A stretch of 49,546 nt of DNA from the NCBI RefSeq assembly GCF_000717345.1, contig NZ_JNZA01000048.1:1-49546 (forward strand), given 5' to 3'. The position numbers and the translations under genes were made by a program. Source of the DNA: Streptomyces lydicus (GTDB lineage Bacteria; Actinomycetota; Actinomycetes; Streptomycetales; Streptomycetaceae). Position 1 is the first letter of the stretch. Each line of letters begins with the position of its first letter. The notes beneath the pieces were generated by a model. The model worked only from the letters and a program-made list of their open reading frames with translations, was not told the DNA's origin and did not search any database. Of the stretch, positions 965-21,890 are shown one piece after another.

Positions 965-982
965 TTCAACAAAGTGTTGACG
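965..982 (+). promoter_or_regulatory. uraD promoter -35 with TTCAAC-type palindrome
   Basis: The palindrome TTCAACAAAGTGTTGAC (965-981) has inverted arms TCAACA/TGTTGA. Its right arm overlaps a -35-like TTGACG (977-982). No convincing -10 hexamer is seen; CTTAGC or TTAGCT around 999-1005 is nearest. Near-identical 17-bp sites lie upstream of aceB (14451-14467) and allB (21873-21889). The overlap with the -35 suggests repression. Confidence 0.6.
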
Positions 983-1053
983 TGTTGTTGCCGGGGGTCT
1001 TAGCTGTTTCCAGCCAAGCAGAGCTGTCCAGCACCAGGCCACGGAGGCTTCCC

Positions 1054-1605
1054 GTGTCTTCGACCACCCAGCGTTCGACGGGGGTCACCCCCGAGCCCCC
1101 GTCGGGGCTCGCCCGGTTCAACACCGCCGACGACAGTACGGCGCGAGCCGTCCTGCACGAGGTGTGTGCCAGCCGGGTCTGGGGGAGCAAGGTCCTCGCC
1201 CGGCGCCCCTACGCCACCACCGACGCCCTGTTCGCCGCCAGCGACGCCGCCATGGCCGAGCTGACCGCGGAGGATCTGGCCGAGGCGATGGCCGGGCACC
1301 CGCCCATCGGCCGGCCGAAGCCCGGAGACCCGACCTCGTCCCGCGAGCAGAGCGGGATGGCCGGGGCCTCCGACGAGCTCAAGACGGAGATGCTCGAACT
1401 CAACCTGGCCTACCAGGAGAAGTTCGGGCATGTCTTCCTGATCTGCGCCTCCGGCCGTACCGGGGAGCAGATGCGCGATGCGGTCCGTAACCGGATCGAC
1501 AACACGCCGGAACAGGAACGAGAGATCGTTCGTGTGGAGCTCGGCAAGATCAACCGCATTCGCCTGACCCGTATCGCGGAACACGCAGAAGGAGACGCAG
1601 CATGA
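1054..1605 (+). CDS. uraD: 2-oxo-4-hydroxy-4-carboxy-5-ureidoimidazoline (OHCU) decarboxylase
   Basis: This enzyme decarboxylates OHCU to (S)-allantoin, the last step of the uricase pathway. The 183-residue protein shows the family's catalytic HPPIG motif (His82), the SREQ signature at 96-99 and the FGHVFLICASGR strand near 124-134. I chose GTG 1054 because GGAGG (1043-1047) is 6 nt upstream. The open frame extends back to 952, but that would run through the terminator tail and the promoter. It overlaps uraH by ATGA, and uricase follows directly, so the three genes are one operon. The call is firm from motif and context. Confidence 0.93.
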   Translation: MSSTTQRSTGVTPEPPSGLARFNTADDSTARAVLHEVCASRVWGSKVLARRPYATTDALFAASDAAMAELTAEDLAEAMAGHPPIGRPKPGDPTSSREQSGMAGASDELKTEMLELNLAYQEKFGHVFLICASGRTGEQMRDAVRNRIDNTPEQEREIVRVELGKINRIRLTRIAEHAEGDAA

Positions 1606-2015
1606 GCAGCGAGACGGCTGCACAGACGTCGGTGTCCACGCACATCCTGGACACCAGCGTGGGCCGCCCCGCGGAGGGCGTCGCCCTCACGCTCTCGGTG
1701 CGCTCCGGCAGCGACGGCACCTGGACCGCCCACGGCGCGTCCAAGACCGACGCGGACGGGCGCTGCAAGGACCTGCCGGCGCTGCCGGAAGGCACCACCC
1801 ACGTGCGCCTCGACTTCGAGACCGAGGCGTACTTCGTTTCCCATCAGCCCAGTTCCAACCAGCAAGCCGAGGAACAGCAGGACGCCCCCCGCGTAAGGGA
1901 CAGCGGAGCCTTCTTCCCGGAGGTGGCAATCACCTTTGCCGTCAAGCCGGGCGAGCACTACCACGTACCGCTGCTGCTCAACCCGTTCGGCTACTCCGTA
2001 TACCGAGGGAGCTAG
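1602..2015 (+). CDS. uraH: 5-hydroxyisourate hydrolase (transthyretin-like)
   Basis: The enzyme hydrolyses 5-hydroxyisourate, the product of uricase, to OHCU. The 137-residue protein opens with STHILDTSVGRPA (catalytic His14), has TDADGRC with the conserved Arg54, then HYHVPLLLNPFGYS with the second active-site His (119 or 121), and ends in the diagnostic YRGS tetrapeptide (134-137). A Gln/Glu-rich stretch at about 82-98 looks like a loop insertion relative to compact homologues of about 110-115 residues. It is translationally coupled to uraD (ATGA) and lies 7 nt before uricase, so intermediates can be passed on by co-made enzymes. Confidence 0.95.
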   Translation: MSSETAAQTSVSTHILDTSVGRPAEGVALTLSVRSGSDGTWTAHGASKTDADGRCKDLPALPEGTTHVRLDFETEAYFVSHQPSSNQQAEEQQDAPRVRDSGAFFPEVAITFAVKPGEHYHVPLLLNPFGYSVYRGS

Positions 2016-2022
2016 CACCGAC

Positions 2023-2946
2023 ATGCCCACGATTCTCGGCCAGAACCAATACGGCAAAGCGGAAAACCGCGTCGTCAAGATCACTCGCGACGGCGACACG
2101 CACCACATCAAGGACCTCAACGTCTCCGTCGCGCTCTCCGGCGACCTGGAGGAGGTCCACCTCTCCGGCTCCAACGCCCACTGCCTGCCCACCGACACGA
2201 CCAAGAACACCGTGTACGCCTTCGCCAAGGAGTACGGGATCGAGTCGGCCGAGCAGTTCGGCATCCACCTGGCCCGGCACTTCGTGACCAGCCAGGAGCC
2301 GATACACCGGGCCCGGATCCGCATCGAGGAGTACGCCTGGGAGCGGATCGCGACCTCCGACGCCAACTCCCGCTTCATCGGCTCCGACGAGGTCAAGCAC
2401 TCCTTCGTCCGCCAGGGCCAGGAGACCCGCCTGACCGAGATCACCTACGACGGTGAGCAGTGGCAGGTCATCTCCGGTCTGAAGGACCTCGTGGTGATGA
2501 ACTCCACCAACTCGGAGTTCTGGGGGTACATCAAGGACAAGTACACGACGCTGAAGGAGGCGTACGACCGCATCCTGGCCACCGAGGTATCGGGCCGCTG
2601 GCGGTTCAACTGGACCGACGACGACCAGCGGATGCCCAACTGGGAGCGTTCGTACGAGCAGGTGAAGAAGCACATGCTGCACGCCTTCGCCGAGACCTAC
2701 AGCCTCTCCCTCCAGCAGACCCTGTACCAGATGGGTTCGCGCATCATCAACAACCGCTCCGAGATCGACGAGGTGCGGTTCTCGCTCCCGAACAAGCACC
2801 ACTTCCTGGTGGACCTGGAGCCGTTCGGGCTCAAGAACGACAATGAGGTCTACTACGCGGCGGACCGCCCGTACGGCCTGATCGAAGCCACTGTTCTGCG
2901 CGACGGTGTCGAGCCCAAGATCCCGGTGGATCTGACGAACCTCTGA
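2023..2946 (+). CDS. pucL: uricase (urate oxidase, cofactor-free)
   Basis: The enzyme oxidises urate with O2 to 5-hydroxyisourate and H2O2. The 307-residue length is typical. Key features are the N-terminal QNQYGK with catalytic Lys12, the TDTTKNT motif at 57-63 carrying the Thr-Asp pair that binds urate, and the C-terminal NRSEIDEVRFSLPNKHH signature near 243-259. The frame is open back to 1936, but ATG 2023 gives the family N-terminus and follows GAGGGAG. It is the third gene of the uraD-uraH-uricase operon, and a 14-bp hairpin follows the stop. No catalase is encoded nearby in the window. Confidence 0.96.
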   Translation: MPTILGQNQYGKAENRVVKITRDGDTHHIKDLNVSVALSGDLEEVHLSGSNAHCLPTDTTKNTVYAFAKEYGIESAEQFGIHLARHFVTSQEPIHRARIRIEEYAWERIATSDANSRFIGSDEVKHSFVRQGQETRLTEITYDGEQWQVISGLKDLVVMNSTNSEFWGYIKDKYTTLKEAYDRILATEVSGRWRFNWTDDDQRMPNWERSYEQVKKHMLHAFAETYSLSLQQTLYQMGSRIINNRSEIDEVRFSLPNKHHFLVDLEPFGLKNDNEVYYAADRPYGLIEATVLRDGVEPKIPVDLTNL

Positions 2947-2971
2947 GCGGCTCCGACGCAACGCCGTGCCT

Positions 2972-3009
2972 CGCGTCCCCTCCCCACCCCGCAGCGGGGA
3001 GGGGACGCG
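2972..3009 (+). terminator. 14-bp perfect stem-loop after uricase
   Basis: CGCGTCCCCTCCCC (2972-2985) pairs perfectly with GGGGAGGGGACGCG (2996-3009) across a 10-nt loop. There is no T run, so it may be a weak terminator, an attenuator or an mRNA-stabilising hairpin between uricase and the permease gene at 3030. Confidence 0.55.
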
Positions 3010-3029
3010 GATCCTGAGGGGAACGACCC

Positions 3030-4406
3030 ATGGCACAGCCATCGCAAGTCCCGCACCACCCCCCGCCCGCGGTCCACCCGGTGGACGAGAAGCCGGCGGC
3101 CAAGCGGCTCGTCCCGGCCGCGCTCCAGCACATCGCCGCCATGTACGCGGGTGTCGTCACCCCTCCGCTCATCATCGGCCAGGCCGTCGGCCTGGACGCC
3201 GCGGGCCGGACCCGGCTGATCGCCGCCGGCCTGCTCATCGCCGGGCTCGCCACGCTCCTGCAGACGCTCGGCGTCCGTACGTTCGCCGGCAACCGGCTGC
3301 CGTTCGTCAACGCGGCCAGCTCCGCCGGCATCACGCCGATGCTCGCCATCGCCGAGACCACCGCCAAGGGCCACCAACTCCCCGCCATCTACGGGGCGGT
3401 GATGGTCGCCGGGGTCTTCTGCCTCGCCGTCGGACCGTTCTTCGGCAGACTGCTGCGTTTCTTCCCGCCGCTGGTCACCGGCGTCGTGATCACCCTCATC
3501 GGGGTCACCCTGATGCCCGTACCGGTCGGCTGGGCGCAGGGCGGCGACCAGCGCGCCGCCGACTTCGGCGACATGAGCAACCTGGCCCTCGCCGCCTTCA
3601 CACTCGTGGTGATCCTGCTCATCCAGCGCTTCACCCAGGGCTTCGTCAAGCAGATCGCGCTGCTGATCGGCCTGGTCGTCGGCACCCTCGCGGCGGTCCC
3701 CTTCGGCATGGCGAGCTTCGACGGGCTGCGCTCGGCCCCGGTCGCCGCGCTGCCCACCCCGTTCGCCTTCGGCCCGCCGGAGTTCCAGCCCGCCGCGATT
3801 CTCTCGCTGTGCATCGTGATGCTGGTGCTGATGACGGAGTCGGCGGCCGGCATGCTCGCCCTCGGCGAGATCTGCGACCGCCCGACCACCGGCGTCACCC
3901 TCACCCGCGGACTGCGCACCGACGGCATCGCCACCCTGCTCGGACCGGTCTTCGGCGGCTTCCCGACCAGCGCCTTCGCGCAGAACGTCGGAGTGGTCTC
4001 GCTGACCCGTGTGCGCAGCCGCTACGTCGTGGCGCTCGCCGGCGCCACCCTCCTGGTCCTCGGTGCCTTCCCCGTCCTGGGCGCCGTGGTCTCCCTGGTG
4101 CCGATGCCGGTGCTCGGCGGTGCGGGTATCGTCCTGTTCGGATCGATCGCGGTCAGCGGTATCCGTACGCTCTCCGAGGCCGGTCTCGACGACAGCTCCA
4201 ACATCATCCTGGTGGCCGTGTCGCTCGGCGCAGGCATCATCCCGCTCGCCGCGCCGACCTTCTACGCGGACTTCCCCGCCTGGGCACAGACCGTGCTCGG
4301 CTCCGGAATCAGTGCCGGAGCCCTGGTAGCGGTCCTGCTCAATCTCTTCTTCCACCATCTCGGCACCCGGAGTCGTTCCACGGTTCCGGCACTCAAATCT
4401 TCCTAG
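3030..4406 (+). CDS. NCS2 xanthine/urate-type permease (first copy)
   Basis: This is a 458-residue, roughly 14-helix transporter of the NCS2 (nucleobase:cation symporter-2) family. After a cytosolic proline-rich N-terminus it has LQHIAAMYAGVVTPPLIIG, the family's first helix with the conserved QH motif. The signature FAQNVGVVSLTRVRSR lies near residues 320-335. The acidic TESAAGMLALGE helix is part of the substrate site. It probably brings urate, xanthine or a related oxopurine into the cell with protons or sodium. GAGGGGAA sits 6 nt before the ATG. It lies between uricase and 8-oxoguanine deaminase and has a paralogue at 6125, so the two may differ in substrate. Exact substrate is not readable here. 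Confidence 0.88.
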   Translation: MAQPSQVPHHPPPAVHPVDEKPAAKRLVPAALQHIAAMYAGVVTPPLIIGQAVGLDAAGRTRLIAAGLLIAGLATLLQTLGVRTFAGNRLPFVNAASSAGITPMLAIAETTAKGHQLPAIYGAVMVAGVFCLAVGPFFGRLLRFFPPLVTGVVITLIGVTLMPVPVGWAQGGDQRAADFGDMSNLALAAFTLVVILLIQRFTQGFVKQIALLIGLVVGTLAAVPFGMASFDGLRSAPVAALPTPFAFGPPEFQPAAILSLCIVMLVLMTESAAGMLALGEICDRPTTGVTLTRGLRTDGIATLLGPVFGGFPTSAFAQNVGVVSLTRVRSRYVVALAGATLLVLGAFPVLGAVVSLVPMPVLGGAGIVLFGSIAVSGIRTLSEAGLDDSSNIILVAVSLGAGIIPLAAPTFYADFPAWAQTVLGSGISAGALVAVLLNLFFHHLGTRSRSTVPALKSS

Positions 4407-4448
4407 GGTCCTGCCGTGCCCACACCATCACCGGAAAGAGGAAGCACG

Positions 4449-5834
4449 ATGGCACCATCGGCAGCCCAGCGCATCGTCATCGAGAACTGTGCGATCGCGA
4501 CCGTCGACGCCGACGACACCGAGTACGCCACCGGCCATGTCGTCGTCGCCGGCAACATCATCGAGTCCATCGGCGCTGGCAAGGCACCCGAGGGCCTGGA
4601 GAACGTCGTCCGCCGCGTCGACGGCACCGGACACCTGGTCACCCCCGGCCTGGTGAATACCCATCACCACTTCTACCAGTGGATCACCCGGGGTCTGGCC
4701 ACCGACCACAACCTGTTCAACTGGCTGGTCGCGCTCTACCCGACCTGGGCCCGTATCGACGCCCCGATGCTCGCCGCGGCCACCCAGGGCTCGCTCGGCA
4801 TGATGGTCAGGGGTGGCGTCACCACCGCCTCCGACCACCACTACGTCTTCCCGCAGGGCTCCGGCGACCTGGTCGCCGCCGAGCTGGCCGCGGCCGCCGA
4901 GATCGGCGCCCGGATCACCCTGGCCCGCGGCTCGATGGACCGCAGCGAGAAGGACGGCGGGCTGCCCCCGGACTTCGCCGTGGAGACCACCGAGGGCGCC
5001 CTGCTGGCCACCGAGGAAGCCGTCGACAAGCACCACGACGCCTCCTTCGGCTCGATGGTGCACATCTCCGTGGCGCCCTGCTCGCCGTTCTCCGTCTCCA
5101 CCGAACTCTTGCGGGAGGGCGCCGTACTGGCCCGCCGTAAGGGCGTACGGATGCACACCCACGGCTCGGAGACCGTGGAGGAGGAGAAGTTCTGCCACGA
5201 GCTGTTCGGCATGGGCCCGACCGACTACTTCGAGTCGACCGGCTGGCTCGGTGACGACGTGTGGATGGCGCACTGCGTCCACATGAACGACTCCGACATC
5301 GCCGCCTTCGCCCGCACGGGCACCGGCGTGGCGCACTGCCCGTCCTCGAACGCGCGGCTGGCGGCCGGTATCGCCCGCGTCCCCGACATGCTCGCGGCCG
5401 GCGTCCCGGTCGGCCTCGGCGTCGACGGCACCGCCTCGAACGAGTCCGGCGAACTCCACACCGAGCTGCGCAACGCCCTGCTGATCAACCGCCTCGGTGC
5501 CCACCGGGAAGCCGCCCTCAACGCCCGCAAGGCGCTGCGGCTCGGCACCTACGGCGGCGCGCAGGTCCTCGGCCGGACCGCCGAGATCGGCTCGTTGGAG
5601 GCCGGCAAGCTCGCCGACCTGGTGCTGTGGAAGCTGGACGGCCTCGGCCACTCCTCCATCGCCGACCCGGTCACCGCGCTGGTCTTCGGCGCGGCCGCAC
5701 CGATCACGCTCTCCCTCGTGGGCGGCAAGCCGGTCGTCGAGGACAACCACCTCACGAACGTCGACGAGGACGCCATCGCCCGCACCGCGCGGGCCGAGGC
5801 ACAGCGTCTGGCCCGGATCGCCGCCGAGGGCTGA
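4449..5834 (+). CDS. 8-oxoguanine deaminase (amidohydrolase superfamily)
   Basis: The enzyme probably deaminates 8-oxoguanine to urate, feeding the uricase operon just upstream. The 461-residue protein has NTHHHFYQWITRGLA, which carries the N-terminal metal-binding histidines. Further on are MHTHGSETVEEEKFC, MAHCVHMND and GLGVDGTASNESGELHTELR, which contain the remaining metal ligands and the catalytic Asp. This set matches bacterial 8-oxoguanine deaminases within the TrzN/AtzB-like COG0402 group. ATG 4449 follows AGAGGAAG; GTG 4416 in the same frame is an alternative. Related guanine or hydroxy-triazine deaminases cannot be fully excluded, but location beside uricase and two oxopurine permeases supports the call. 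Confidence 0.85.
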   Translation: MAPSAAQRIVIENCAIATVDADDTEYATGHVVVAGNIIESIGAGKAPEGLENVVRRVDGTGHLVTPGLVNTHHHFYQWITRGLATDHNLFNWLVALYPTWARIDAPMLAAATQGSLGMMVRGGVTTASDHHYVFPQGSGDLVAAELAAAAEIGARITLARGSMDRSEKDGGLPPDFAVETTEGALLATEEAVDKHHDASFGSMVHISVAPCSPFSVSTELLREGAVLARRKGVRMHTHGSETVEEEKFCHELFGMGPTDYFESTGWLGDDVWMAHCVHMNDSDIAAFARTGTGVAHCPSSNARLAAGIARVPDMLAAGVPVGLGVDGTASNESGELHTELRNALLINRLGAHREAALNARKALRLGTYGGAQVLGRTAEIGSLEAGKLADLVLWKLDGLGHSSIADPVTALVFGAAAPITLSLVGGKPVVEDNHLTNVDEDAIARTARAEAQRLARIAAEG

Positions 5835-5872
5835 CCCCCTCGGCGCGGTCCACGACCGACGCCACCCCAGAC

Positions 5873-5967
5873 TCGGCCGGGAGGGACGGCTCCCGGCCGA
5901 TCTTGTGGATCCGAGCAGGATCCGCAAGAAGCCGGACCCCGGGGCGCGGGACCCCTCGCGCCCCGGG
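5873..5967 (+). terminator. three consecutive stem-loops after the deaminase gene
   Basis: The first stem is TCGGCCGGGAG (5873-5883) with CTCCCGGCCGA (5890-5900), followed by TCTTG. The second is CTTGTGGATCC (5902-5912) with GGATCCGCAAG (5918-5928), one G-T pair. The third is CCCGGGGCGCG (5938-5948) with CGCGCCCCGGG (5957-5967). They probably block transcription from the deaminase gene into the second permease gene. The rest of 5968-6124 shows no gene. Confidence 0.6.
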
Positions 5968-6124
5968 CCGGTCGGCCTCCCCCACCGCCGTTGACGCGCC
6001 ACAAGCGCCGCCCGCACCACACGCTCACCAGGCGACTTCTCGCACCACGCACCACATGGCAAGCCCTCCGTGACAGCCTCGCACCGCCGGCCCCGGCGCT
6101 GCAGAAATCGACAGGAGGCCCGCA

Positions 6125-7573: not shown

Positions 7574-7588
7574 CCCCGGACACCGCAT

Positions 7589-7632
7589 CGGCCCGTAGGG
7601 GAGCGTCAACCAAGCTCCTCCTACGGGCCGTT
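7589..7632. terminator. bidirectional terminator between permease and chitosanase genes
   Basis: CGGCCCGTAGG (7589-7599) pairs with CCTACGGGCCG (7620-7630), and the inner GGAGC pairs with GCTCC, giving a 16-bp stem with one bulged T, followed by TTG. It lies between convergent genes and can serve both. Confidence 0.8.
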
Positions 7633-7661
7633 GCGCTGCGCGGCGGGCCGCGGCGTGCGGA

Positions 7662-8549
7662 TCAGCCGATGTGGTAGCTGTCCCCGTACACCTTCCAGTC
7701 CAGCGGGGTGTGCAGATCGAGGTTTCCCTTCTGGAGGAAGACCCGCTGTGCGGTGTCGACCCGGCTGGTGTCGCTGTGCGCCTCCTCCTGCTTCATCGCC
7801 CAGACCCGGGCGTCGAGGAAGGCGTTGAGGTAGGTCTTCTCGTCGCCGCCCTGGGCCGGCGGCTTGGCCTTGGCCAGCGCCCGCTTGCGGATGCTGGAGA
7901 AGCTGGTCGGGTCGCTGCCGTCACCGTGCATCACGATCGCGTCGTAGTACGCGAACTGGCCCAGCACGCCGATGCCGTCGGCCTTGCCCTGCTTGACCGC
8001 GGGGTTGAAGTACACCCGGTCCCGCTCGTCGTTCTGGGCCTTCTGGAACTCGGGGTCCTGGGCGGCCTTCTTCCAGTCCTTGGTGTAGTTGGGGTCCAGG
8101 CCCTCGTGCGAGTCGCTGCCGTCCACCTTGCGCAGCGCGGGGAGGTACTTGGCCAGGACGTTGCCGGGCTTGCGCTGCGTGTAGAGCTCGACGAGTTCGA
8201 GCATGTCGTGGGTGCCGGAACAGAAGCCGATGATGCCGCCCGTGTAGCCGCGGCCGTCACCGATGTCCTCGATGTACTTGTACTGGGCCTTCCAGTTCAG
8301 CGAGGAGTTCTCGGCGCTGGAGACCAGCTGCATCGCGATCTCCTTCTTCGCCGGGTCGTCGAGGCCGGACGCCGCCCGTGCGGCGTGCGGCGCGGAGTGC
8401 GCGGTGGCCGGGGCCGGGTGGTCGGCCGGTCCGGCGGTGGTGGCGAGGGCGGTCGCGGGCACGGCCAGCAGGGCGAGGCCGAGGGCGACGCGGGTGGCTG
8501 TCCTGGGCAGGGCCTTGGGCAGGGCCCTGCCTATCGATCGGGTGCGCAT
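7662..8549 (-). CDS. csn: secreted chitosanase, glycoside hydrolase family 46
   Basis: This is an exported endo-hydrolase of chitosan. A 295-residue precursor starts MRTRSIGRALPKALPRTATR, then a hydrophobic core VALGLALLAVPATALA and an Ala-X-Ala-type cleavage region, a Sec signal peptide. The mature domain shows the GH46 active site: SSAENSSLNWKAQYKYIED with the acid Glu, and EDIGDGRGYTGG with the nucleophile-activating Asp, followed by IIGFCSGTHDML. The frame is open to 8594, but ATG 8549 gives a proper signal peptide. A CsnR-box-like palindrome lies about 50 bp upstream, pointing to induction by chitosan oligomers. Confidence 0.93.
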   Translation of the reverse strand: MRTRSIGRALPKALPRTATRVALGLALLAVPATALATTAGPADHPAPATAHSAPHAARAASGLDDPAKKEIAMQLVSSAENSSLNWKAQYKYIEDIGDGRGYTGGIIGFCSGTHDMLELVELYTQRKPGNVLAKYLPALRKVDGSDSHEGLDPNYTKDWKKAAQDPEFQKAQNDERDRVYFNPAVKQGKADGIGVLGQFAYYDAIVMHGDGSDPTSFSSIRKRALAKAKPPAQGGDEKTYLNAFLDARVWAMKQEEAHSDTSRVDTAQRVFLQKGNLDLHTPLDWKVYGDSYHIG

Positions 8550-8597
8550 GGAGTCAGTCCTCCAGTTCGGAGCGAGCCGTGGGGGGTTCCCCAATCG

Positions 8598-8735: not shown

Positions 8736-9302
8736 TCACCCCGGCAGCTCGTTCAGCAGTCCGTTCAGCAGCCCGTGAATTCCCGGCCGCGGGTCGAAGT
8801 CCGCTGCGGGGAAGGTGAGTTGACGGAACGCGACCCCGTCCAGGTGGTCGAGGAGGATCTCGCAGTGCCGGCGCGGCGTGCGCGAACCGAGGCGCCGCAG
8901 CCACTCGGTACCCCGGTCGATGGTGGCCTCCCGGCCGCGGGCGAGGGCCGCGCGCAGTTCGGGCCGGGCCGTGGACTCCAGGGAGAGGGTGAAGCGGGCG
9001 GCGGTCCTGGCTCGCGCCGGGCCGGTCGCGTACCGGAGGAAGCGGGTGACCTCATCGGCGAGTTCACCGACGCCGGCCGGCGCGGGCCCCGCGCTGACGC
9101 GCTCCCAGTCGCGGCGCTCCAGGGCCCCCAGGTGGTCGACGAGGCCGTCGACCAGGGCCGCCCGGTTGCGGAAGTGGTTGGAGGTCGTACCGGACGGGAC
9201 CCCGGCCGCGGTGTCCACGGCCTGATAGGTGAGCCGCCGCGCCCCCTCGCTCCCGAGGACCTCCAGCGCCGCGTCCAGAACCTGCTCCCGCCGACGTGCC
9301 AC
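8736..9302 (-). CDS. TetR-family transcriptional regulator
   Basis: The N-terminal HTH runs RREQVLDAALEVLGSEGARR, then LTYQAVDTAAGVPSGTTSNHFRNRAALVDGL, the standard TetR layout, followed by an all-helical ligand domain (188 residues in total). I prefer GTG 9302 because AGAAGG is 8 nt upstream. In-frame GTGs at 9335 and 9350 would start inside a tandem repeat that looks like promoter/operator DNA. It is divergent from the M20 dipeptidase-YfcC pair and may control that pair as well as itself. The ligand is unknown. Confidence 0.85.
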   Translation of the reverse strand: MARRREQVLDAALEVLGSEGARRLTYQAVDTAAGVPSGTTSNHFRNRAALVDGLVDHLGALERRDWERVSAGPAPAGVGELADEVTRFLRYATGPARARTAARFTLSLESTARPELRAALARGREATIDRGTEWLRRLGSRTPRRHCEILLDHLDGVAFRQLTFPAADFDPRPGIHGLLNGLLNELPG

Positions 9303-9327
9303 TCCGTGCGCCCTTCTCGGTCTTGCC

Positions 9328-9357
9328 GGATCCACTATTTTTGGATCCACTATTTTT
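9328..9357. repeat. two tandem copies of a 15-bp repeat in the tetR promoter
   Basis: GGATCCACTATTTTT occurs twice head to tail (9328-9342 and 9343-9357) with no mismatch. On the minus strand TTTACA followed by AAATAG/AATAGT (17-18 nt spacing) overlaps the distal copy, so the repeats sit at the predicted tetR promoter. They may be operator half-sites or a recent duplication. The rest of 9358-9594 has only CTGACTCAACGTCAG (9521-9535), a possible short operator before the dipeptidase gene. Confidence 0.6.
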
Positions 9358-12655: not shown

Positions 12656-12672
12656 TGCGGTGCGAGCGGTGC

Positions 12673-14426: not shown

Positions 14427-14467
14427 AGACTAGTTTCCTTATCGCGGAACTTCAATGGTTTGTTGAT
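14427..14467 (-). promoter_or_regulatory. aceB promoter with two adjacent operators
   Basis: On the minus strand, TTGAAG (14455-14450), exactly 17 nt and TAGTCT (14432-14427) form a strong promoter about 120 nt before the start codon. The 15-bp palindrome TTCCGCGATAAGGAA fills the spacer (14449-14435). The 17-bp palindrome ATCAACAAACCATTGAA (14467-14451) overlaps the -35. Each palindrome recurs at other catabolic promoters in the window. This is the only promoter with both. Confidence 0.7.
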
Positions 14468-14525
14468 GTCGAGATTCTCTGGGTCGACACAAGTGGTGAT
14501 CGAATGGCGCTCGGTGCCATACCCG

Positions 14526-15203: not shown

Positions 15204-15284
15204 GGGGACTGCTTACCTCATGGCGCCGTGTGACGCGTCGCCCTGGCGGGTGCCGCCCGCGGTGCCGGTGCGCGGTGCCGTCGC

Positions 15285-15509
15285 TCAGGCCGCGTCGTCG
15301 GACGCGCGCGGGCGGGGGATGCTCGGCCGGAAGCGCTCCCGCAGGTGGTGCGTCCGCTCCTCCACGCGCCGCCGCTCGGCGACGTAGCGGTGTATGTGCT
15401 CCAGGGTGATTTCCGACGCATCGGAAAGGCCGTACGCGCGACAGATGAGCTGGACGACGCTGACGCCGCGGCGGTTCGGGCCGGTGCCGGGACCGGTGTT
15501 GGGCTCCAT
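15285..15509 (-). CDS. small hypothetical protein
   Basis: This is a 74-residue soluble protein with a helical, charged core (VVQLICRAYGLSDASEITL, then EHIHRYVAERRRVEER). I recognise no family. GGAGA lies about 6 nt before the ATG and the third codon positions are GC-rich, so it looks like a real gene. It lies 81 nt upstream of the MobA-like gene in the same direction and may be co-transcribed. AT-rich inverted bases (gatatgccggatat) just upstream may belong to its promoter. Confidence 0.6.
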   Translation of the reverse strand: MEPNTGPGTGPNRRGVSVVQLICRAYGLSDASEITLEHIHRYVAERRRVEERTHHLRERFRPSIPRPRASDDAA

Positions 15510-15896
15510 GGCAGTCTCCGATCCAGTGATATGCCGGATATTTCCTTAGAAGGGAGAATGCTCCGTTCCGCCACCGCCTACGCATCGAATTCGCGACGAA
15601 CATGCCAATGGGTGCCGGGGAGAACGCACGTACTGACACATCATCAGGCCGAAAACGGGTACCGCGTGTGGGGGAGTGGTCGATGGGGCGTGTGGGGTGC
15701 GAGTGGGGGTGGTGCGGCCCTGGTGACGCCCCAATTGCCGTCGCGAAACCGGCTCTTCGGACAAGGCGTCCCGTTCGCCCGCCGGCGATGTCACGGCCGG
15801 GCGTGTGGCCGGATAAGGTTCTGCCCCGTTGCGGACATCGTGGCTGCCCGCCGGTGCGGCGGGTGAGGCGCATGTTTTTCTGAGTCGGGGGACGTC
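15510..15896. other. 387-bp intergenic region, no gene seen
   Basis: This gap separates the divergent small gene and the kinase gene. Open frames here have poor third-position bias and no ribosome site. Apart from the AT-rich element near 15527-15542 I see no repeat, hairpin or strong promoter pair. Confidence 0.5.
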
Positions 15897-17792
15897 GTGG
15901 TGAACAGTGTGGGCTCGTCCGGGATCTTCCAGCCGCTGGAGGGGGACGACCCCCGGGTGATCGCGGGTTACCGCCTCACCGCACGGCTCGGCGCCGGCGG
16001 CATGGGCAAGGTGTACCTCTCCTACACGCCCGGCGGACGCCCGGTGGCCATCAAGGTGATCCGCCCCGAGTTCAGCGAGGACGCGGAGTTCCGGCGCCGG
16101 TTCAAGCAGGAAGTGCAGTCCGCGCAGCGGGTGCAGGGGCTGTTCACCGCGCCGGTCATCGACAGCGACGCGGACGGCCCGAGCCCCTGGCTCGCCACCG
16201 CGTACGTCCCCGGCCCCTCGCTCGCCGCGGCGGTCGCCGAGCACGGCAAGCTGCCGGTGCCGACCGTGCTGCTGCTGGTCGCCGGGATCGCCGAGGCGCT
16301 CCAGGTGATCCATGGCGCGGGCATCGTCCACCGGGACCTGAAGCCGTCCAACGTGCTGCTGGCCGCCGACGGCCCGCGGGTCATCGACTTCGGTATCGCC
16401 CGCGCCGCCGACGCGACCTCGCTGACCAGCAGCGGCGTCACCGTCGGCACCCCCACCTTCATGGCGCCGGAGCAGGCCGCGGGCAGCACCATCACCCCGG
16501 CCACCGACATCTTCGCGCTCGGCCAGGTCGCGGCGTACGCGGCCATCGGCACACCGGCGTTCGGCGAGGGCACCTCGCACGGCGTGCTCTACCGCATCGT
16601 CCACGAAGAGCCCGATCTGACCGGACTGCCGGAAGAACTGCGCGAGTTGGTCTCCCGCTGCCTGGCCAAGGACGCGTCGGAGCGGCCGTCCATCGCCGAG
16701 GTGATCGCGCTGTGCGGCGCGGCCTCCGGCCAGACCCAGCTGCGCCGCCCCGAGGAGTGGCTGCCCACCGCCGTCGCCGCGGACATCACCACCCGCGCGG
16801 CGGCGCCGGCCCCCGCGCAGGCGCCGCCGCCCCCGCTGGAGGCGCCCACCGCGGGCGCTCCGGTCCAGCCGCCCACCGTGCCCGCGCAGCCGGCCCAGGC
16901 CCCGGCGCAGCCACCGGCCGCCGTTCCCGCGCAGCCGCCGACCGTCCCGCCGGTGCCGACCGAGCTGAATCACCCGCAGACCCCGCCGCCGGGCTTCGGT
17001 CCCGCGTACGCGCCGACCGTCGGCACCCCGGCGCAGGGCACCGCGACGCACGCCGGCGCGGCCGCGACCGGTCCGCACGGCACCGGCCCGCACCCCACCG
17101 GCCCGGCCGTCGCCCACCCCGCGGCCGGCGCACCGGGTCCGCAGCCGCCGAAGAAGAAGCGCAAGGGGCTGATCACGGCCCTGGTGGTGGTCTGCCTGCT
17201 GGTCTTCGCGGGCGCCGGCGGCGCCGTCGTCTACACCTTCATGAAGGACGACGGCCGGAAGAAGAGCGACCAGGCCACCAGCAACAACAAGGCGGAGAAC
17301 AGCGACGCCTCGCCGACGCCCACCCCGGCCGGGACGGCGAGCCCCGACGGCGCGACGAACACCCCCGCCGCGCCCCAGCAGGACCCGACCCCGGTCGACT
17401 TCAAGAACATCAATCTGCCCGACGACTACCACCTGTCGATGGCCGACGAGGCGATGAAGCCGACGAACACGGACACCGACACCGACACCGACTTCGCGTA
17501 CCAGGACAACAGCTACTCGGACGACCAGGTCAACACCGAGAACGGCAAGCTGGTGCTGCTCAACGCCGGTGAGGAGGGCTCGCTCGACACCTGCCGCAAC
17601 GAGACCCGCTTCACCGAGACCATCCTCGCCAAGCAGCTCACCAAGGGCTCGCAGATCTGCCTGACCACCGACTACGGCCACGTCGCCCTGATCACCTTCA
17701 AGGGCTTCGCGCCGAAGTCGGACCCCAGCAGCTACATGACCGTCGACGTCCGGGTGTGGCGCAACGCGGTGCAGCCCAAGCAGGACTCCTGA
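15897..17792 (+). CDS. membrane serine/threonine protein kinase (PknB/Hanks type)
   Basis: The 631-residue protein has an N-terminal kinase domain at about 23-280. It shows a glycine loop LGAGGMGKVY, VAIK with Lys53, HRDLKPSN (His145), DFG and MAPEQ, so catalysis is intact. A Pro/Ala-rich linker (about 295-420) leads to a basic KKKRK stop and one transmembrane helix (about 424-446). The C-terminal 185 residues are outside and have no PASTA repeats. They are Ser/Asp/Asn-rich, include a short TDTDTDTD run and carry two cysteines near the end that could form a disulfide. GTG 15897 and GTG 15900 are equivalent starts. Likely a sensor kinase of unknown signal. Confidence 0.92.
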   Translation: MVNSVGSSGIFQPLEGDDPRVIAGYRLTARLGAGGMGKVYLSYTPGGRPVAIKVIRPEFSEDAEFRRRFKQEVQSAQRVQGLFTAPVIDSDADGPSPWLATAYVPGPSLAAAVAEHGKLPVPTVLLLVAGIAEALQVIHGAGIVHRDLKPSNVLLAADGPRVIDFGIARAADATSLTSSGVTVGTPTFMAPEQAAGSTITPATDIFALGQVAAYAAIGTPAFGEGTSHGVLYRIVHEEPDLTGLPEELRELVSRCLAKDASERPSIAEVIALCGAASGQTQLRRPEEWLPTAVAADITTRAAAPAPAQAPPPPLEAPTAGAPVQPPTVPAQPAQAPAQPPAAVPAQPPTVPPVPTELNHPQTPPPGFGPAYAPTVGTPAQGTATHAGAAATGPHGTGPHPTGPAVAHPAAGAPGPQPPKKKRKGLITALVVVCLLVFAGAGGAVVYTFMKDDGRKKSDQATSNNKAENSDASPTPTPAGTASPDGATNTPAAPQQDPTPVDFKNINLPDDYHLSMADEAMKPTNTDTDTDTDFAYQDNSYSDDQVNTENGKLVLLNAGEEGSLDTCRNETRFTETILAKQLTKGSQICLTTDYGHVALITFKGFAPKSDPSSYMTVDVRVWRNAVQPKQDS

Positions 17793-18010
17793 GACGGGAG
17801 TCCCGGGCCGGGGCTCCCGAGACGCGGGTGCTCGATACGCGGGGCGCGTTCCCTCAGGGGATCGCGCCCCGACCGCGCCGGTGATCCGGGGATTTTCGCT
17901 CTCCGTATGGCGCGAGCAGCGCAGAGTGGCGTTAACTGTCCCGCATTGTGGAACGGGCAACGGCCATGGAGGACGCCGTCGTTGTGGAACAACTGCGGAG
18001 GAACGGACGA

Positions 18011-18301
18011 GTGACCGCGGTCGACGGCGACCCGCGCGTCCAGGAGCTGCGCGGTGCGGTCGCCCGGCTGCGTCGTCAGCTGGCCGTGCTCCCCGGGGAG
18101 TTACCGGACCGGGGCGCCGCCGATGACGAGTTGGCGGCGCTGGACGCGATGGTCAGCCACGGGCTGCCGGAGGTGCCCCGGCTGCGCCGGTCGCTGCTGC
18201 TGATCGCCGGGGCGGTGGGCTCGGTGAGCGCGCTGTCGCCCGCGCTGAGCGACGTGCGCGAGGGCATCGACCGCTTCGGTCAGCTGCCGCCCGGCCGCTG
18301 A
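18011..18301 (+). CDS. small conserved protein, likely DUF5955
   Basis: The 96-residue protein reads VTAVDGDPRVQELRGAVARL, then RRQLAVLPGELPDRG.ADDELAALDAM and PEVPRLRRSLLLIAGAVGSV and SALSPAL. The second half is a hydrophobic helix. From memory this matches Streptomyces proteins called DUF5955; no function is known. I chose GTG 18011 because GGAGG (17997-18001) is 9 nt upstream. The frame is open to 17948 without a better site. It stands alone between the kinase gene and convergent allR. Confidence 0.6.
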   Translation: MTAVDGDPRVQELRGAVARLRRQLAVLPGELPDRGAADDELAALDAMVSHGLPEVPRLRRSLLLIAGAVGSVSALSPALSDVREGIDRFGQLPPGR

Positions 18302-18369
18302 CCGGGGGATCGTGGCGGCCTGCGAGGTCCGCACCGCCGGCCGTCCCCCCGGCCCCTTCGTCCGGTTCG

Positions 18370-19170
18370 TCAGGCGGGCGTCTGGTTGGCGAGCGCCACC
18401 GACAGCTGCGCCGCGACGTCCTGCAGCACCGGCACGATCTTGTCCGTGGCGTCCTCGGTCACCCGGCCGGTCGGGCCGGAGATGGAGATGGCGGCGGAGG
18501 TGGGGGAGTTGGGGACCGGCACGGCGAGGCAGCGGACGCCGATCTCCTGCTCGTTGTCGTCGACGGCGTAGCCGATCCGGCGGACGTCGGCCAGCGCCTC
18601 CAGGAAGCGCTCCGGGTCGGTGATCGTCTTGTCGGTCGCGGCGGGCATCCCGGTACGGCCGAGGAGCGCGCGGACCTCCTCCGGCGGGTGGTTGGCCAGC
18701 AGGGCCTTGCCGACGCCGGTGGAGTGCGGCAGCACCCGGCGGCCGACCTCGGTGAACATCCGCACCGCGTGCCGGGAGGGCACCTGCGCGACGTACACGA
18801 TCTCGTCGCCGTCGAGCAGCGCCATGTTGGCGGTCTCGCCGGTCTCCTCCACCAGGCGGGCCAGGAACGGCCGGGCCCAGGTGCCCAGCAGGCGCGAGGC
18901 GCTCTCGCCGAGGCGGATCAGCCGGGGGCCGAGCGCGTACCGGCGGTTGGGCTGCTGGCGTACGTAACCGCAGGCGACGAGCGTGCGCATCAGCCGGTGG
19001 ATGGTGGGCAGCGGCAGGCCGCTGCTGCCGGACAGCTCGCTCAGACCGACCTCGCCGCCGGCGTCGGCCATCCGCTCCAGCAGGTCGAAGGCGCGCTCGA
19101 GGGACTGGACGCCGCCGGCGCCTGCGGGCTTGGCTTCGGCGGCGGAGGTGCTGGCGCTGGACGGCGGCAC
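18370..19170 (-). CDS. allR: IclR-family regulator of allantoin catabolism (AllR-like)
   Basis: The 266-residue protein has an N-terminal winged HTH (SLERAFDLLERMADAGGEVG, LSELSGSSGLPLPTIHRLM, RTLVACGYVRQ) at about 22-85. The IclR effector domain follows (TGETANMALLDGDEIVYVAQ, STGVGKALLANHP, EQEIGVRCLAVPVPN). In S. coelicolor an IclR protein named AllR represses the allantoin pathway genes and responds to pathway intermediates such as allantoate and glyoxylate; position and sequence fit that protein. It starts at GTG 19170 with AGGA upstream and is divergent from the racemase-permease-allB-alc genes. It is the prime candidate to bind one of the two recurrent palindromes. Confidence 0.88.
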   Translation of the reverse strand: MPPSSASTSAAEAKPAGAGGVQSLERAFDLLERMADAGGEVGLSELSGSSGLPLPTIHRLMRTLVACGYVRQQPNRRYALGPRLIRLGESASRLLGTWARPFLARLVEETGETANMALLDGDEIVYVAQVPSRHAVRMFTEVGRRVLPHSTGVGKALLANHPPEEVRALLGRTGMPAATDKTITDPERFLEALADVRRIGYAVDDNEQEIGVRCLAVPVPNSPTSAAISISGPTGRVTEDATDKIVPVLQDVAAQLSVALANQTPA

Positions 19171-19354
19171 GTCGCGTTCCTTTCAGGGCGGGTCAGATCG
19201 GTCTCGGCTCGGGACTAACGGGCGCCGGGCCCGACCGGAGCAGCCTACCGGTCCCCCTACGGTGACACACGGTCTCTCGCACACTCGTTCTCGCCGGTCA
19301 GCCCCTCTTTGTCCCACCGTGCGAGATGCCGGGCAACTGGGTAGCCGTGATCCC

Positions 19355-19396
19355 TTGACGGTGCCAGTGGCCGTAGCTACGTTCTGCTGCGCGAAA
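19355..19396 (+). promoter_or_regulatory. promoter and palindromic operator of the racemase-permease genes
   Basis: TTGACG (19355-19360), 17 nt and TACGTT (19378-19383) form a good promoter. The palindrome TTCTGCTGCGCGAAA (19382-19396) starts on the last two bases of the -10, the same geometry as at hyi. A further small inverted repeat ATTCTGTGGAAT (19407-19418) lies in the leader. The rest of the 269-bp gap to allR shows nothing clear for allR itself. Confidence 0.6.
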
Positions 19397-19439
19397 CCTA
19401 CTGTCCATTCTGTGGAATCCTCCAAATCGCTGGAGTGTC

Positions 19440-20228
19440 ATGCGCATTCTCGTCATGAACCCGAACACCACGGTTTCCATGACCGCCTCGATCCGCGCCA
19501 CCGCAACCGCAGCCGCCGCACCGGGCACCGAGATCCTCGCCACCGAACCCCTGTGGGGTCCGGAATCCATTGAGGGGCACTTCGAGGGCTACCTGAGCGC
19601 CGCGGCCGTCCTGGACCGGCTCGCCACCCTCGGCATCCCCTTCGACGCGCTGGTCATGGCCGGCTTCGGCGAACCGGGCCGGGAGGGTGCCCAGGAACTG
19701 CTGGACGTCCCCGTGCTGGACATCACCGAGAGCGCCGCCCAGATGGCGATGATGCTCGGGCACGCCTACGGGGTCGTGACCACGCTCGACCGCGCCGTAC
19801 CGCAGATCCAGGACCGGCTGCTGACCGCCGGGCTGCTCCAGCGCTGCGCCGCGGTGCGCGGCACCGGGCTCGGGGTGCTGGAACTGGAGGAGGACCCCGC
19901 GCGGACCGTCGAGGTGATCATCGAGACCGCCCGCGAGGTAGTCCGGGCCGGTGCTGAGGTGATCTGCCTGGGCTGCGGCGGGATGGCCGGGCTGGACGCC
20001 GAGGTCGCGGCGGCGCTCGGGGTGCCGGTCGTCGACGGGGTCGCCGCGGCGGTGAAGTTCGCCGAGGCGGTCGTCGGTCTCGGGCTCACCACCAGTACGG
20101 CGCGCAGCTTCGCGCCGCCGCGCCCGAAGGTCATCGGTGCGTGGCCGCTGAGCAGGCATTTGTCCTCGGGGCGCGCCGCGGACCCGCTCCGTGCCGCTGA
20201 ATTTTCCGCACAGACATCAGACATCTGA
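19440..20228 (+). CDS. Asp/Glu/hydantoin racemase superfamily protein with a single catalytic cysteine
   Basis: The 262-residue protein opens MRILVMNPNTTVSMTASI, the typical start of hydantoin and allantoin racemases. Those enzymes have two catalytic cysteines. The second is present here in ICLGCGGMAGL. The first, normally in ACFGDPG, is replaced by Gly in MAGFGEPGREG. A Gly/Cys pair at these positions is what arylmalonate decarboxylase has, so plain racemisation is doubtful. Context next to an allantoin-type permease, allantoinase and AllR suggests it acts on allantoin or a ureido intermediate. GGAG precedes the ATG. The family is certain; the reaction is open. Confidence 0.8.
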   Translation: MRILVMNPNTTVSMTASIRATATAAAAPGTEILATEPLWGPESIEGHFEGYLSAAAVLDRLATLGIPFDALVMAGFGEPGREGAQELLDVPVLDITESAAQMAMMLGHAYGVVTTLDRAVPQIQDRLLTAGLLQRCAAVRGTGLGVLELEEDPARTVEVIIETAREVVRAGAEVICLGCGGMAGLDAEVAAALGVPVVDGVAAAVKFAEAVVGLGLTTSTARSFAPPRPKVIGAWPLSRHLSSGRAADPLRAAEFSAQTSDI

Positions 20229-20306
20229 CAACTGGTGTCCTTCTGACCCTTCTGAGCCCTCCGACCCTCGCTCTCCAAGCTCCACCCAACCTGCCTGGGA
20301 GGACCC

Positions 20307-21845
20307 GTGACCACACCCCCGCAACCGGACCCGCGGCTGTTCAACGAGGATCTCGCGCCGGCCCCCGAGCGCAAATGGGGCACGTACAGCATCTTCGCGC
20401 TGTGGATGTCCGACACTCACGCGATCAGCAACTACGCCTTCGCCTCCAGCCTGTTCGTGCTGGGCCTGCCGGCCTGGGAGGTGTTCGTCGCGCTGCTGGC
20501 CGGCATCACGATCGTCTACTGGCTGATGAACCGCATGGGGCACGCGGGGCACCGGACCGGTGTGCCCTACCCGGTGCTCGCCCGCGCCAGCTGGGGGGTG
20601 TACGGAGCCAACATCCCGGCGCTGTTGCGCGCGGTGATGGCCGTCGCCTGGTACGGCATCCAGACCTGGCTGGCCTCCACCGCCGTCGTGCTGCTGACCC
20701 TCCAGCTCGCGCCCGGTCTGGACGCGTACAACCACAACTCCGTGCTGGGCCTGTCGACGCTGGGCTGGGTCGCGTTCATGGTGATGTGGGGGCTCCAGGC
20801 GGCCCTGCTGACCCGGGGGATGGAGTTCATCCGCAAGGTGCAGGACTTCGCGACCGGGCCGGTGGTCTGGCTGGTGGTGCTCGCCCTCGCGCTCTATCTG
20901 GTCATCAGGGCCGGCGGGGACATCTCGCTGACCCGCAGCATCACCGGCCTCAGCGGCGCCGAGCAGGCCCGGCAGAGCCTCATCGCGGTCAGCCTGACCG
21001 TCGCCACCTTCCTGACCCTGGTGCTCAACTACGCGGACTTCGCCCGCTTCACGCCCGACCACCGCTCCTACCGGCGCGGCAATCTGATCGGGCTGCCGGT
21101 GAACTTCACCGCCTTCGCCGTGGTCGCCGTGCTGGTCACCGCCGGCACCATCTCGGTGTTCGGCGAGGCGATCTACGACCCGGTGAAGGTGATCCAGAAG
21201 ATCGACAACCCGGTGGTCACCGTCATCGGCGCGCTGGCCTTCATCGTCGCCACCATCGGCATCAACGTCGTCGCCAACTTCGTCTCGCCCGCCTACGACT
21301 TCGCCAACCTCGCGCCGAAGTATCTGAACTTCAAGCGCGGCGGCATGATCACCGCGGTGCTGGCCGTCGTCGTCATGCCCTGGAAGCTGTACTCCTCGGC
21401 GCTGGTGATCCAGTACTTCCTGGGCGCGCTGGGCGCCTTCCTCGGGCCGCTGGTGGCGATTCTGCTCGTCGACTACTACCTCGTGCGGCGCGGCCGGATC
21501 GACGTCGACGCGCTGTTCTCCGCCGACGCCGCGGGCGCGTACTTCTACCGCAGGGGCTACAACCCCAAGGCCGTGATCGCCTTCCTCCCGGCCGCCGCGG
21601 TCTCGGCCGCGGTCGCGCTGGTGCCGGCCTTCGGGGCGGTGGCGCCGTTCTCCTGGATCTTCGGGATGGCGCTCGCCGGCGGGCTGCACGCCCTGGTCTC
21701 GGGCCGGGGCAGGGGCGCCGCGGGTGCCGGGCCGATTCCGGACGAGATCATCCCGTCCCAGGTCAGGGCCGTGGCGGCGGAGGAGCGGGGGCCGGCGCCC
21801 CACCTCGGGGTGACGTCCGCGCCGGTGCCGGCGGAGGGGTCTTGA
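20307..21845 (+). CDS. NCS1-family permease, probably allantoin
   Basis: This is a 512-residue polytopic protein of the nucleobase:cation symporter-1 family. It carries the early motif ERKWGTYSIFALWMSDTHAI, then ARASWGVYGANIPALLRAV, ATFLTLVLNYADFARFTP and NVVANFVSPAYDFANL. The region also contains DYYLVRRGRIDVDALF. This set is typical of PucI-like allantoin/hydantoin permeases. GTG 20307 has GGGAGGA about 4 nt upstream. It lies 78 nt behind the racemase gene, same strand, and before allB, so it likely imports allantoin for the enzymes that follow. The very C-terminus (after about 470) is a low-complexity Ala/Pro/Gly tail. Confidence 0.88.
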   Translation: MTTPPQPDPRLFNEDLAPAPERKWGTYSIFALWMSDTHAISNYAFASSLFVLGLPAWEVFVALLAGITIVYWLMNRMGHAGHRTGVPYPVLARASWGVYGANIPALLRAVMAVAWYGIQTWLASTAVVLLTLQLAPGLDAYNHNSVLGLSTLGWVAFMVMWGLQAALLTRGMEFIRKVQDFATGPVVWLVVLALALYLVIRAGGDISLTRSITGLSGAEQARQSLIAVSLTVATFLTLVLNYADFARFTPDHRSYRRGNLIGLPVNFTAFAVVAVLVTAGTISVFGEAIYDPVKVIQKIDNPVVTVIGALAFIVATIGINVVANFVSPAYDFANLAPKYLNFKRGGMITAVLAVVVMPWKLYSSALVIQYFLGALGAFLGPLVAILLVDYYLVRRGRIDVDALFSADAAGAYFYRRGYNPKAVIAFLPAAAVSAAVALVPAFGAVAPFSWIFGMALAGGLHALVSGRGRGAAGAGPIPDEIIPSQVRAVAAEERGPAPHLGVTSAPVPAEGS

Positions 21846-21871
21846 CGGGCCGGGATCCGGAGTGAAGACTC

Positions 21872-21890
21872 ATTCAACAGACTGTTGAAT
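21872..21890 (+). promoter_or_regulatory. perfect 19-bp palindromic operator upstream of allB
   Basis: ATTCAACAGACTGTTGAAT is a perfect inverted repeat about a central A. It ends 155 bp before the allB start, and its right arm contains TTGAAT, a possible -35; no convincing -10 follows. It is the best copy of the motif also found before uraD and aceB. The remaining DNA to 22045 is GC-rich with no other element. Confidence 0.7.

What the first reader, a model, noticed from the sequence alone, without database searches (positions are those of the whole stretch)
965..21890. A 17-19 bp TTCAAC-type palindrome shared by uraD, aceB and allB promoters
Seen directly: TTCAACAAAGTGTTGAC (965-981), TTCAATGGTTTGTTGAT (14451-14467) and TTCAACAGACTGTTGAA (21873-21889, extendable to a perfect 19-mer). 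In each, one arm supplies a -35-like TTGAxx. A chance match at three promoters of one pathway is unlikely. I infer a common repressor that coordinates urate breakdown, allantoin breakdown and glyoxylate use. AllR (IclR family, encoded at 18370-19170) is the first candidate; the DauR-like protein at 502 is another.
Basis: partly seen in the sequence, partly recalled or inferred. Interest (0 to 1): 0.7.

Follow-up and report, generated by a model that had tools for sequence, protein, structure and literature searches.

The report
Shared operator of purine-breakdown genes
A 17-base DNA palindrome sits in front of urate, allantoin, glyoxylate and catalase genes in Streptomyces and its relatives, and it looks like the landing site of a small uncharacterised DNA-binding protein encoded next to the urate genes, not of the known allantoin repressor AllR.

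Summary
The three palindromes are real. TTCAAC-N5-GTTGAA ("B") is a selective operator-like element: 94 perfect copies in 61 Streptomyces-genus genomes (reversed control 18). Of 75 copies examined, 39 precede allB, 18 a cyclophilin-like gene, 6 urease ureA; 7 have no recognised gene. Near-perfect copies precede uraD (74 of 78 genomes), catalase (15 of 15) and aceB (24 of 30).

AllR is probably not the binder. A second palindrome, TTCC-N7-GGAA ("A"), marks gcl (23 of 24), hyi (38 of 45), aceB (28 of 30) and many allR-allB promoters, but no uraD, ureA or cyclophilin-like promoter. Its targets (AllR targets are recalled) and IclR-like half-sites make A the better AllR operator. B is absent from gcl (0 of 24) and remains at uraD in 4 of 5 genomes without detectable AllR.

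B follows the 126-aa HTH_22 (PF13309) gene at 502-882. Two genomes without it beside uraD, and one where it is frameshifted, show no B in 34-60 kb of purine loci. One genome breaks the rule: HTH_22 intact, B absent.

Best model: HTH_22, perhaps with its DUF77-fold partner (227-505), binds B; AllR acts separately through A. No binding was shown.

The parts
965..981 (+). Motif B copy before uraD-hiuH-uricase; its right arm gives the -35-like TTGACG (977-982)
   Evidence: conserved in 74 of 78 genomes; information 1.90 bits per base over 17 bp against 0.25 and 0.65 in the 20 bp on either side, n=74
14451..14467 (-). Motif B copy before aceB (malate synthase, minus strand); right arm on the aceB strand is the -35-like TTGAAG
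   Evidence: B in 24 of 30 aceB promoters
14435..14449 (-). Motif A copy (TTCC-N7-GGAA) abutting motif B, lying between the -35-like and -10-like elements of aceB
   Evidence: A in 28 of 30 aceB promoters; A and B cores 17 bp apart in 22 of 22 promoters that have both
21873..21889 (+). Perfect motif B copy before allB-allantoicase
   Evidence: at most 1 mismatch in 24 of 30 allB loci, 78 of 78 named Streptomyces loci with enough upstream
115..129 (-). Motif A copy between hyi (minus strand, cut by the window edge) and gene 227; assigned to hyi
   Evidence: in relatives exact A is present in 38 of 45 loci with divergent hyi and 0 of 25 without
19403..19417 (.). Motif A-like sequence with 1 mismatch between allR and the divergent racemase gene
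   Evidence: GTCCATTCTGTGGAA
1..99 (-). Start of hyi (hydroxypyruvate isomerase), runs off the window
   Evidence: Translation; relatives' hyi matches TIGR03234 (305.6 bits, below its cut-off 353)
227..505 (+). Small protein (92 aa) with a DUF77/MTH1187-like predicted fold, always next to HTH_22 where seen except G022
   Evidence: Pfam PF01910 20.3 bits, below cut-off 24.9; predicted fold best match 1yqh DUF77 E 2.7e-5
502..882 (+). HTH_22 (PF13309) protein, 126 aa; candidate binder of motif B
   Evidence: 71.4 bits, cut-off 29.6; beside uraD in 73 of 74 B-bearing loci, the other being cut by a contig end
1054..1605 (+). uraD
   Evidence: TIGR03180 and PRK13798 over cut-off (scanned from 952)
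1602..2015 (+). hiuH, hydroxyisourate hydrolase
   Evidence: TIGR02962 over cut-off
1936..2946 (+). ORF holding uricase; the true start lies further in
   Evidence: PF01014
12673..14301 (-). aceB, malate synthase
   Evidence: PF01274, PF20659, PF20656
18370..19170 (-). allR, IclR family regulator; probable binder of motif A
   Evidence: PF01614, PF09339; no NCBIfam cut-off reached
22046..23389 (+). allB, allantoinase (start chosen at 22046)
   Evidence: TIGR03178 over cut-off
23389..24516 (+). alc, allantoicase
   Evidence: PF03561

Best explanation
The palindrome TTCAAC-N5-GTTGAA (motif B) is the operator of one transcription factor whose targets are the urate operon (uraD-hiuH-uricase), allB-allantoicase, aceB, a catalase, a cyclophilin-like gene and, in some species, urease and a few others. 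The most likely factor is the 126-aa HTH_22 (PF13309) protein encoded just upstream of uraD (502-882), acting as a dimer on the two arms, possibly together with the co-encoded DUF77-fold protein (227-505) as a ligand-binding partner. AllR works in parallel through a different palindrome, TTCC-N7-GGAA (motif A), at gcl, hyi, aceB and allR-allB; at aceB the two operators abut, B over the -35-like element and A in the spacer. Shown here: both motifs, their target sets, conservation, positions, and the link of B with an intact HTH_22 gene. Inferred: that HTH_22 binds B, that AllR binds A, the dimer, the partner's role, the ligand, and the sign of control (a site 9-27 bp before the start codon of most cyclophilin-like genes suggests repression).
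For: Genome-wide selectivity: 94 perfect copies in 61 genomes, 18 for the reversed control (summed and by eye); of the 75 listed copies that were read, allB 39, cyclophilin-like 18, ureA 6, DUF6986 3, purine-type permease 1, catalase 1, other 7. Two motifs with different targets: B in uraD 57 of 60, allR set 51 of 60, allB 24 of 30, aceB 24 of 30, cyclophilin-like 13 of 13, ureA 10 of 30, gcl 0 of 24; A in gcl 23 of 24, aceB 28 of 30, allR set 34 of 60, allB 16 of 30, and 0 of 60, 0 of 13, 0 of 30 for uraD, cyclophilin-like, ureA. A also follows hyi: 38 of 45 with hyi, 0 of 25 without. Catalase promoters: B in 15 of 15 (5 of 20 regions held no full catalase). HTH_22 link: 73 of 74 genomes with intact HTH_22 next to uraD keep B there, 0 of 3 without do (Fisher 5e-5, not corrected for kinship); G070 has HTH_22 split between two frames and no B with at most 1 mismatch in 60 kb though A stays at aceB; G008 and G025 have no HTH_22 and no B in 34 and 40 kb. 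AllR is dispensable for B: 4 of 5 genomes with uraD and no AllR orthologue found keep B. uraD B is a conservation island.
Against: No binding or expression test. G022 has an intact HTH_22 gene but no B at uraD or allB; it also lacks gene 227 and AllR on that contig and any AllR match in the genome at the cut-off. G023 and G047 have intact HTH_22 and keep B at uraD but not in the allR-allB gap. Absence of HTH_22 in G008 and G025 was seen only in the stretches fetched, not genome-wide, and those genomes also lack exact A sites although AllR is present, so both motifs may have drifted there. The G070 frameshift could be an assembly error. The HTH_22 gene and the uraD site are neighbours, so loss of one could carry the other away, though B is lost at distant genes too. 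The whole-model fold search found no confident match (best E 0.97). Seven of 75 perfect copies lie at unrelated genes.
Confidence: 0.7

Rival explanations
1. AllR (18370-19170) binds motif B, as the reader first proposed; motif A is bound by something else.
For: B lies in most allR-allB gaps (51 of 60 in the allR set), as expected for an autoregulated local repressor. AllR and B co-occur in most genomes of the genus. The published AllR motif could not be read here, so it cannot be ruled out that it equals B.
Against: gcl promoters lack B (0 of 24) and carry A (23 of 24); hyi likewise carries A (38 of 45). gcl and hyi as AllR targets is recalled, not from a call. B stays at uraD in 4 of 5 genomes without AllR. 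AllR is present in G070, G008 and G025, where B is gone. IclR-family A/T-rich motifs with GGAA and TTCC half-sites (PMC8222616, passages) resemble A, not B.
Confidence: 0.15
2. A third, unlinked transcription factor binds motif B; HTH_22 is only a hitchhiking neighbour of uraD.
For: No direct evidence ties HTH_22 to B; targets are scattered over the genome, and G022 keeps HTH_22 without B. Only one purine region per genome was read for candidates.
Against: Three separate genomes that lost or broke HTH_22 have no B in the purine loci inspected, and HTH_22 is next to uraD in 73 of 74 B-bearing loci (the other is cut by a contig end), also in genera where B is left at uraD alone, G047 and G015 in the stretches read.
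Confidence: 0.13
3. The palindromes are only chance or -35 promoter sequence without a shared regulator.
For: One arm overlaps a -35-like TTGA at all three window sites, and the aceB copy has 2 mismatches.
Against: Both arms and the spacing are conserved: 1.90 bits per base over 17 bp at uraD against 0.25 and 0.65 beside it. Reversed control pattern gives 18 copies against 94. At the cyclophilin-like gene the site sits 9-27 bp before the start codon in 17 of 18 (55 in the other), where a -35 cannot be.
Confidence: 0.02

Closest known systems
AllR regulon of Streptomyces coelicolor (Navone et al. 2015, recalled; seen here only as a reference in PMC12772271)
   Same: Same pathway and overlapping targets: allB, aceB, gcl and hyi (recalled).
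   Different: Motif B is missing from gcl and reaches uraD, catalase and a cyclophilin-like gene; motif A fits the AllR target set better.
E. coli AllR and IclR operators (PMC8222616 Table 1, passages)
   Same: A/T-rich palindromes bound by IclR-family dimers; motif A shares the GGAA and TTCC half-sites.
   Different: In E. coli the half-sites face as GGAA-N-TTCC; motif A is TTCC-N7-GGAA. Motif B shares neither.
DauR/YheO-type regulators (HTH_22, PF13309; description recalled)
   Same: The candidate protein carries the PF13309 domain over its cut-off.
   Different: It is 126 aa and no PAS-like N-terminal domain was found by Pfam; instead the predicted N-terminus is a short alpha-beta unit and it is encoded with a DUF77-fold protein.
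MTH1187/DUF77/YkoF thiamine-binding fold
   Same: Predicted fold of gene 227 matches 1yqh, 1lxj, 2eky, 1vk8, 1lxn; 14 matches at E <= 0.001.
   Different: Sequence score is below the Pfam cut-off (20.3 against 24.9); ligand unknown.

Membership tests
Motif B as an AllR operator | Present at promoters of the AllR target gcl (target recalled) | tested here: not met
   0 of 24 gcl promoters
Motif B as an AllR operator | Disappears when AllR is absent | tested here: not met
   Kept at uraD in 4 of 5 genomes without AllR orthologue at E <= 1e-44 (G010, G011, G017, G034 keep it; G022 does not). G034 has a 41%-identity paralogue only
Motif B as an AllR operator | Direct binding by AllR | not testable with these tools
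   Needs gel shift or footprint
Motif A as the AllR operator | Present at gcl, hyi, aceB and allR-allB | tested here: met
   gcl 23 of 24, aceB 28 of 30, allR set 34 of 60; hyi 38 of 45
Motif A as the AllR operator | Presence follows AllR across genomes | tested here: inconclusive
   G010 has A near hyi but no AllR found; G008, G025 and G047 have AllR but no exact A in the stretches read
Motif B as the operator of the HTH_22 protein | Presence follows an intact HTH_22 gene | tested here: met
   73 of 74 with intact gene keep B at uraD, 0 of 3 without; one exception G022
Motif B as the operator of the HTH_22 protein | Direct binding | not testable with these tools
   Needs gel shift or DAP-seq
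DauR/YheO regulators | HTH_22 domain (PF13309) | tested here: met
   71.4 bits, cut-off 29.6
DauR/YheO regulators | N-terminal PAS-like domain (recalled) | tested here: not met
   Only PF13309 matched at E <= 0.001
Thiamine_BP/DUF77 (gene 227) | Pfam PF01910 over its cut-off | tested here: not met
   20.3 bits against 24.9
Thiamine_BP/DUF77 (gene 227) | MTH1187-like fold | tested here: met
   Model pLDDT 81; Foldseek 1yqh E 2.7e-5, 14 matches at E <= 0.001

The most novel reading that the evidence does not exclude
The 92-aa DUF77-fold protein and the 126-aa HTH_22 protein form a split one-component regulator: the first binds a purine-breakdown intermediate, the second binds DNA. Together they own motif B and run a regulon that couples uricase (an H2O2 producer) to catalase and carries the nitrogen through allantoin to glyoxylate and, in some species, urease, in parallel with AllR on motif A. 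In favour: the two genes sit together in the loci where both could be seen, and in the one genome with HTH_22 intact but no gene 227 nearby (G022) B is gone.
Probability: 0.25. Interest if true: 0.75.

Novelty: new variant of a known kind. Interest (0 to 1): 0.6.

Why it matters
If right, purine breakdown in Streptomyces has two layers of control, not one, and the second regulator is an unstudied 126-aa protein. It would explain how uricase, which makes hydrogen peroxide, is switched on together with a catalase. It gives a ready-made set of promoters, several without any AllR-type site, for finding the regulator and its ligand, and it links a cyclophilin-like gene of unknown role and, in some species, urease to purine use.

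Tried and rejected
AllR as the binder of B: rejected on gcl and hyi promoters and on AllR-less genomes.

A cascade in which AllR controls the 227-HTH_22 operon through the A site at 115-129: first suggested by 26 of 57 loci, then rejected, because A there occurs only with a divergent hyi (38 of 45 against 0 of 25).

Co-occurrence of AllR and B within the genus: uninformative, because an AllR orthologue of 74% identity or more was found in 32 of the 33 genomes searched; G109, 82% complete, showed only matches of at most 39% identity.

Searches read minus-strand loci in the wrong orientation; one search replaces both. In one search the B site of G010 fell outside the start-based limit; include it.

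Literature: ten searches of the CC-licensed PMC library listed no paper whose title or abstract start describes motif B, or an HTH_22 regulator of urate genes, in Streptomyces. Listings are partial and subscription papers are not held, so absence from print is not shown. Dropped before counts: loci with short upstream sequence (1 of 30 uraD; 1 of 25 gcl; 3 short and 5 without gene 227 of 78); 19 of the 94 perfect copies were not read.
Full report
Observation. Against TTCAAC-N5-GTTGAA (motif B) they carry 1, 2 and 0 mismatches. The whole genome has 2 perfect places: allB in the window, and one 10 bp before the start of a cyclophilin-like (PF04126) gene on another contig. With one mismatch allowed there are 11 places against 2 for the reversed pattern; these add the uraD site and one about 70 bp before a catalase gene (PF00199).

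Unbiased census. A scan of 61 genomes of the genus for perfect copies found 94, in 56 genomes, against 18 for the reversed pattern (sums and by eye). I read the 75 places that the call listed. Within 420 bp of a start, 39 lie before allB (mostly the allR-allB gap), 18 before the cyclophilin-like gene, 6 before ureA, 3 before a DUF6986 gene (PF22484), 1 before a purine-type permease, 1 before catalase; 7 have no recognised gene nearby. So the motif is highly selective for purine breakdown plus a few recurrent extra genes.

Promoter by promoter. With correct orientation (searches had minus-strand loci the wrong way round), allB has the site at up to 1 mismatch in 24 of the 30 best loci of 61 family genomes, uraD at 1 mismatch in 29 of 29, aceB at up to 3 mismatches in 24 of 30 and ureA in 11 of 30; gcl has 1 of 25 at 3 mismatches (L205, and that hit lies inside the gene). 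The reversed pattern gave 3 or more mismatches in every promoter; 1 ureA and 4 gcl sequences reached 3 with it. In other genera uraD has the site in 27 of 30 loci. Over 74 of 78 genomes the 17 bp at uraD hold 1.90 bits per base, against 0.25 and 0.65 in the 20 bp on either side. In 80 named Streptomyces loci, B lies before allB in 78 of 78 and before aceB in 49 of 51 with enough sequence. In the present genome ureA has no B site.

A second operator. Promoters of allR lacking B showed a different palindrome, TTCC-N7-GGAA (motif A). Counts (2-base block shuffles expect 0.1-0.2): gcl 23 of 24, aceB 28 of 30, allR set 34 of 60, allB set 16 of 30, but uraD 0 of 60, cyclophilin-like 0 of 13, ureA 0 of 30. 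B in the same sets: gcl 0 of 24, aceB 24 of 30, allR 51 of 60, allB 24 of 30, uraD 57 of 60, cyclophilin-like 13 of 13, ureA 10 of 30. Spacings of 5, 6 or 8 gave 0 or 1 per set. At aceB the two are in strict register, cores 17 bp apart in 22 of 22 promoters with both; four allB promoters have them 16 bp apart. On the aceB consensus the right arm of B is TTGAAC, 17 bp before TANTAT, and A fills the spacer. In the window A lies at 14435-14449, abutting the aceB B site, and at 115-129.

What A is. A also lies between gene 227 and the divergent hyi gene. It is there in 38 of 45 loci with hyi and 0 of 25 without, so it belongs to hyi. gcl and hyi are targets of AllR in S. coelicolor as I recall the abstract of Navone et al. 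2015; the paper is not held. IclR-family operators with GGAA and TTCC half-sites are listed in PMC8222616 (passages seen). I therefore take A as the AllR operator, at about 0.75. Against: G010 has A near hyi but no AllR match, and G008, G025 and G047 have AllR without an exact A in the stretches read.

What binds B. Six of 51 non-Streptomyces family genomes have no AllR match at E <= 1e-44 and a seventh (G034) only a 41% paralogue. Five of these have uraD (G010, G011, G017, G022, G034); four keep B there. In contrast B follows the HTH_22 gene (PF13309) that sits beside uraD. It is visible in 73 of the 74 B-bearing loci; the other is cut by a contig end. Of four genomes without B at uraD, G008 and G025 show no HTH_22 in the stretches read and G070 has the gene split between two reading frames; G022 has it intact but lacks gene 227 and AllR. 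In G070 (60 kb), G008 (34 kb) and G025 (40 kb) of purine loci no B with at most one mismatch remains, while G070 still has A at aceB. Counting genomes as independent, 73 of 74 against 0 of 3 gives Fisher 5e-5; kinship is not corrected for. G047 and G015 keep B only at uraD, and G023 only at uraD and aceB, in the stretches read, which suggests that uraD is the oldest target; this last step is inference.

Regulon logic. Catalase promoters near gcl carry B in 15 of 15 regions with a full catalase gene (5 of 20 regions had none). Uricase makes hydrogen peroxide (established knowledge), so joint control with catalase is sensible. The cyclophilin-like gene has B 9-27 bp before its start in 17 of 18 cases (55 bp in the other), a position that suits a repressor. 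In an S. coelicolor comparison SCO6209 (uraD), SCO6247 and SCO6248 rise together (log2 changes 3.11, 2.92, 2.43; PMC6629963, table passages seen), which agrees with shared control but does not name the factor.

Verdict. The inference of a common regulator is supported; AllR as that regulator is not; the neighbouring HTH_22 protein is the best candidate, at about 0.7. Nothing here shows binding.

Noticed in passing
L009 (G000:C47) 1620-2699, minus strand: A 359-aa gcl-like TPP enzyme, matching glyoxylate carboligase models far below cut-off, sits beside the catalase gene in this genome, while a full gcl lies on another contig (C79).
   Followed up: partly
window 19440-21845: A hydantoin-racemase-type gene and an NCS1 permease separate allR from allB here, whereas most relatives have allR and allB divergent with one shared gap.
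   Followed up: partly
window 7662-8594: A glycoside hydrolase family 46 (chitosanase-type) gene with a TetR regulator next to it (8736-9350) lies within the purine gene region.
   Followed up: no
L087 1532-2830, L060, L106: A DUF6986 gene (distantly like malyl-CoA lyase) has a perfect B site 15-44 bp before its start in three genomes; a possible extra regulon member in glyoxylate metabolism.
   Followed up: partly
L295 and L450: B sites just upstream of gene 227 in two genomes, possible autoregulation of the 227-HTH_22 pair.
   Followed up: no
L103 (G113:C1) 1501-1517: A perfect B site lies downstream of an amidase gene (over the cut-off of PRK06061) and before a methyltransferase-like gene; purpose unknown.
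   Followed up: no
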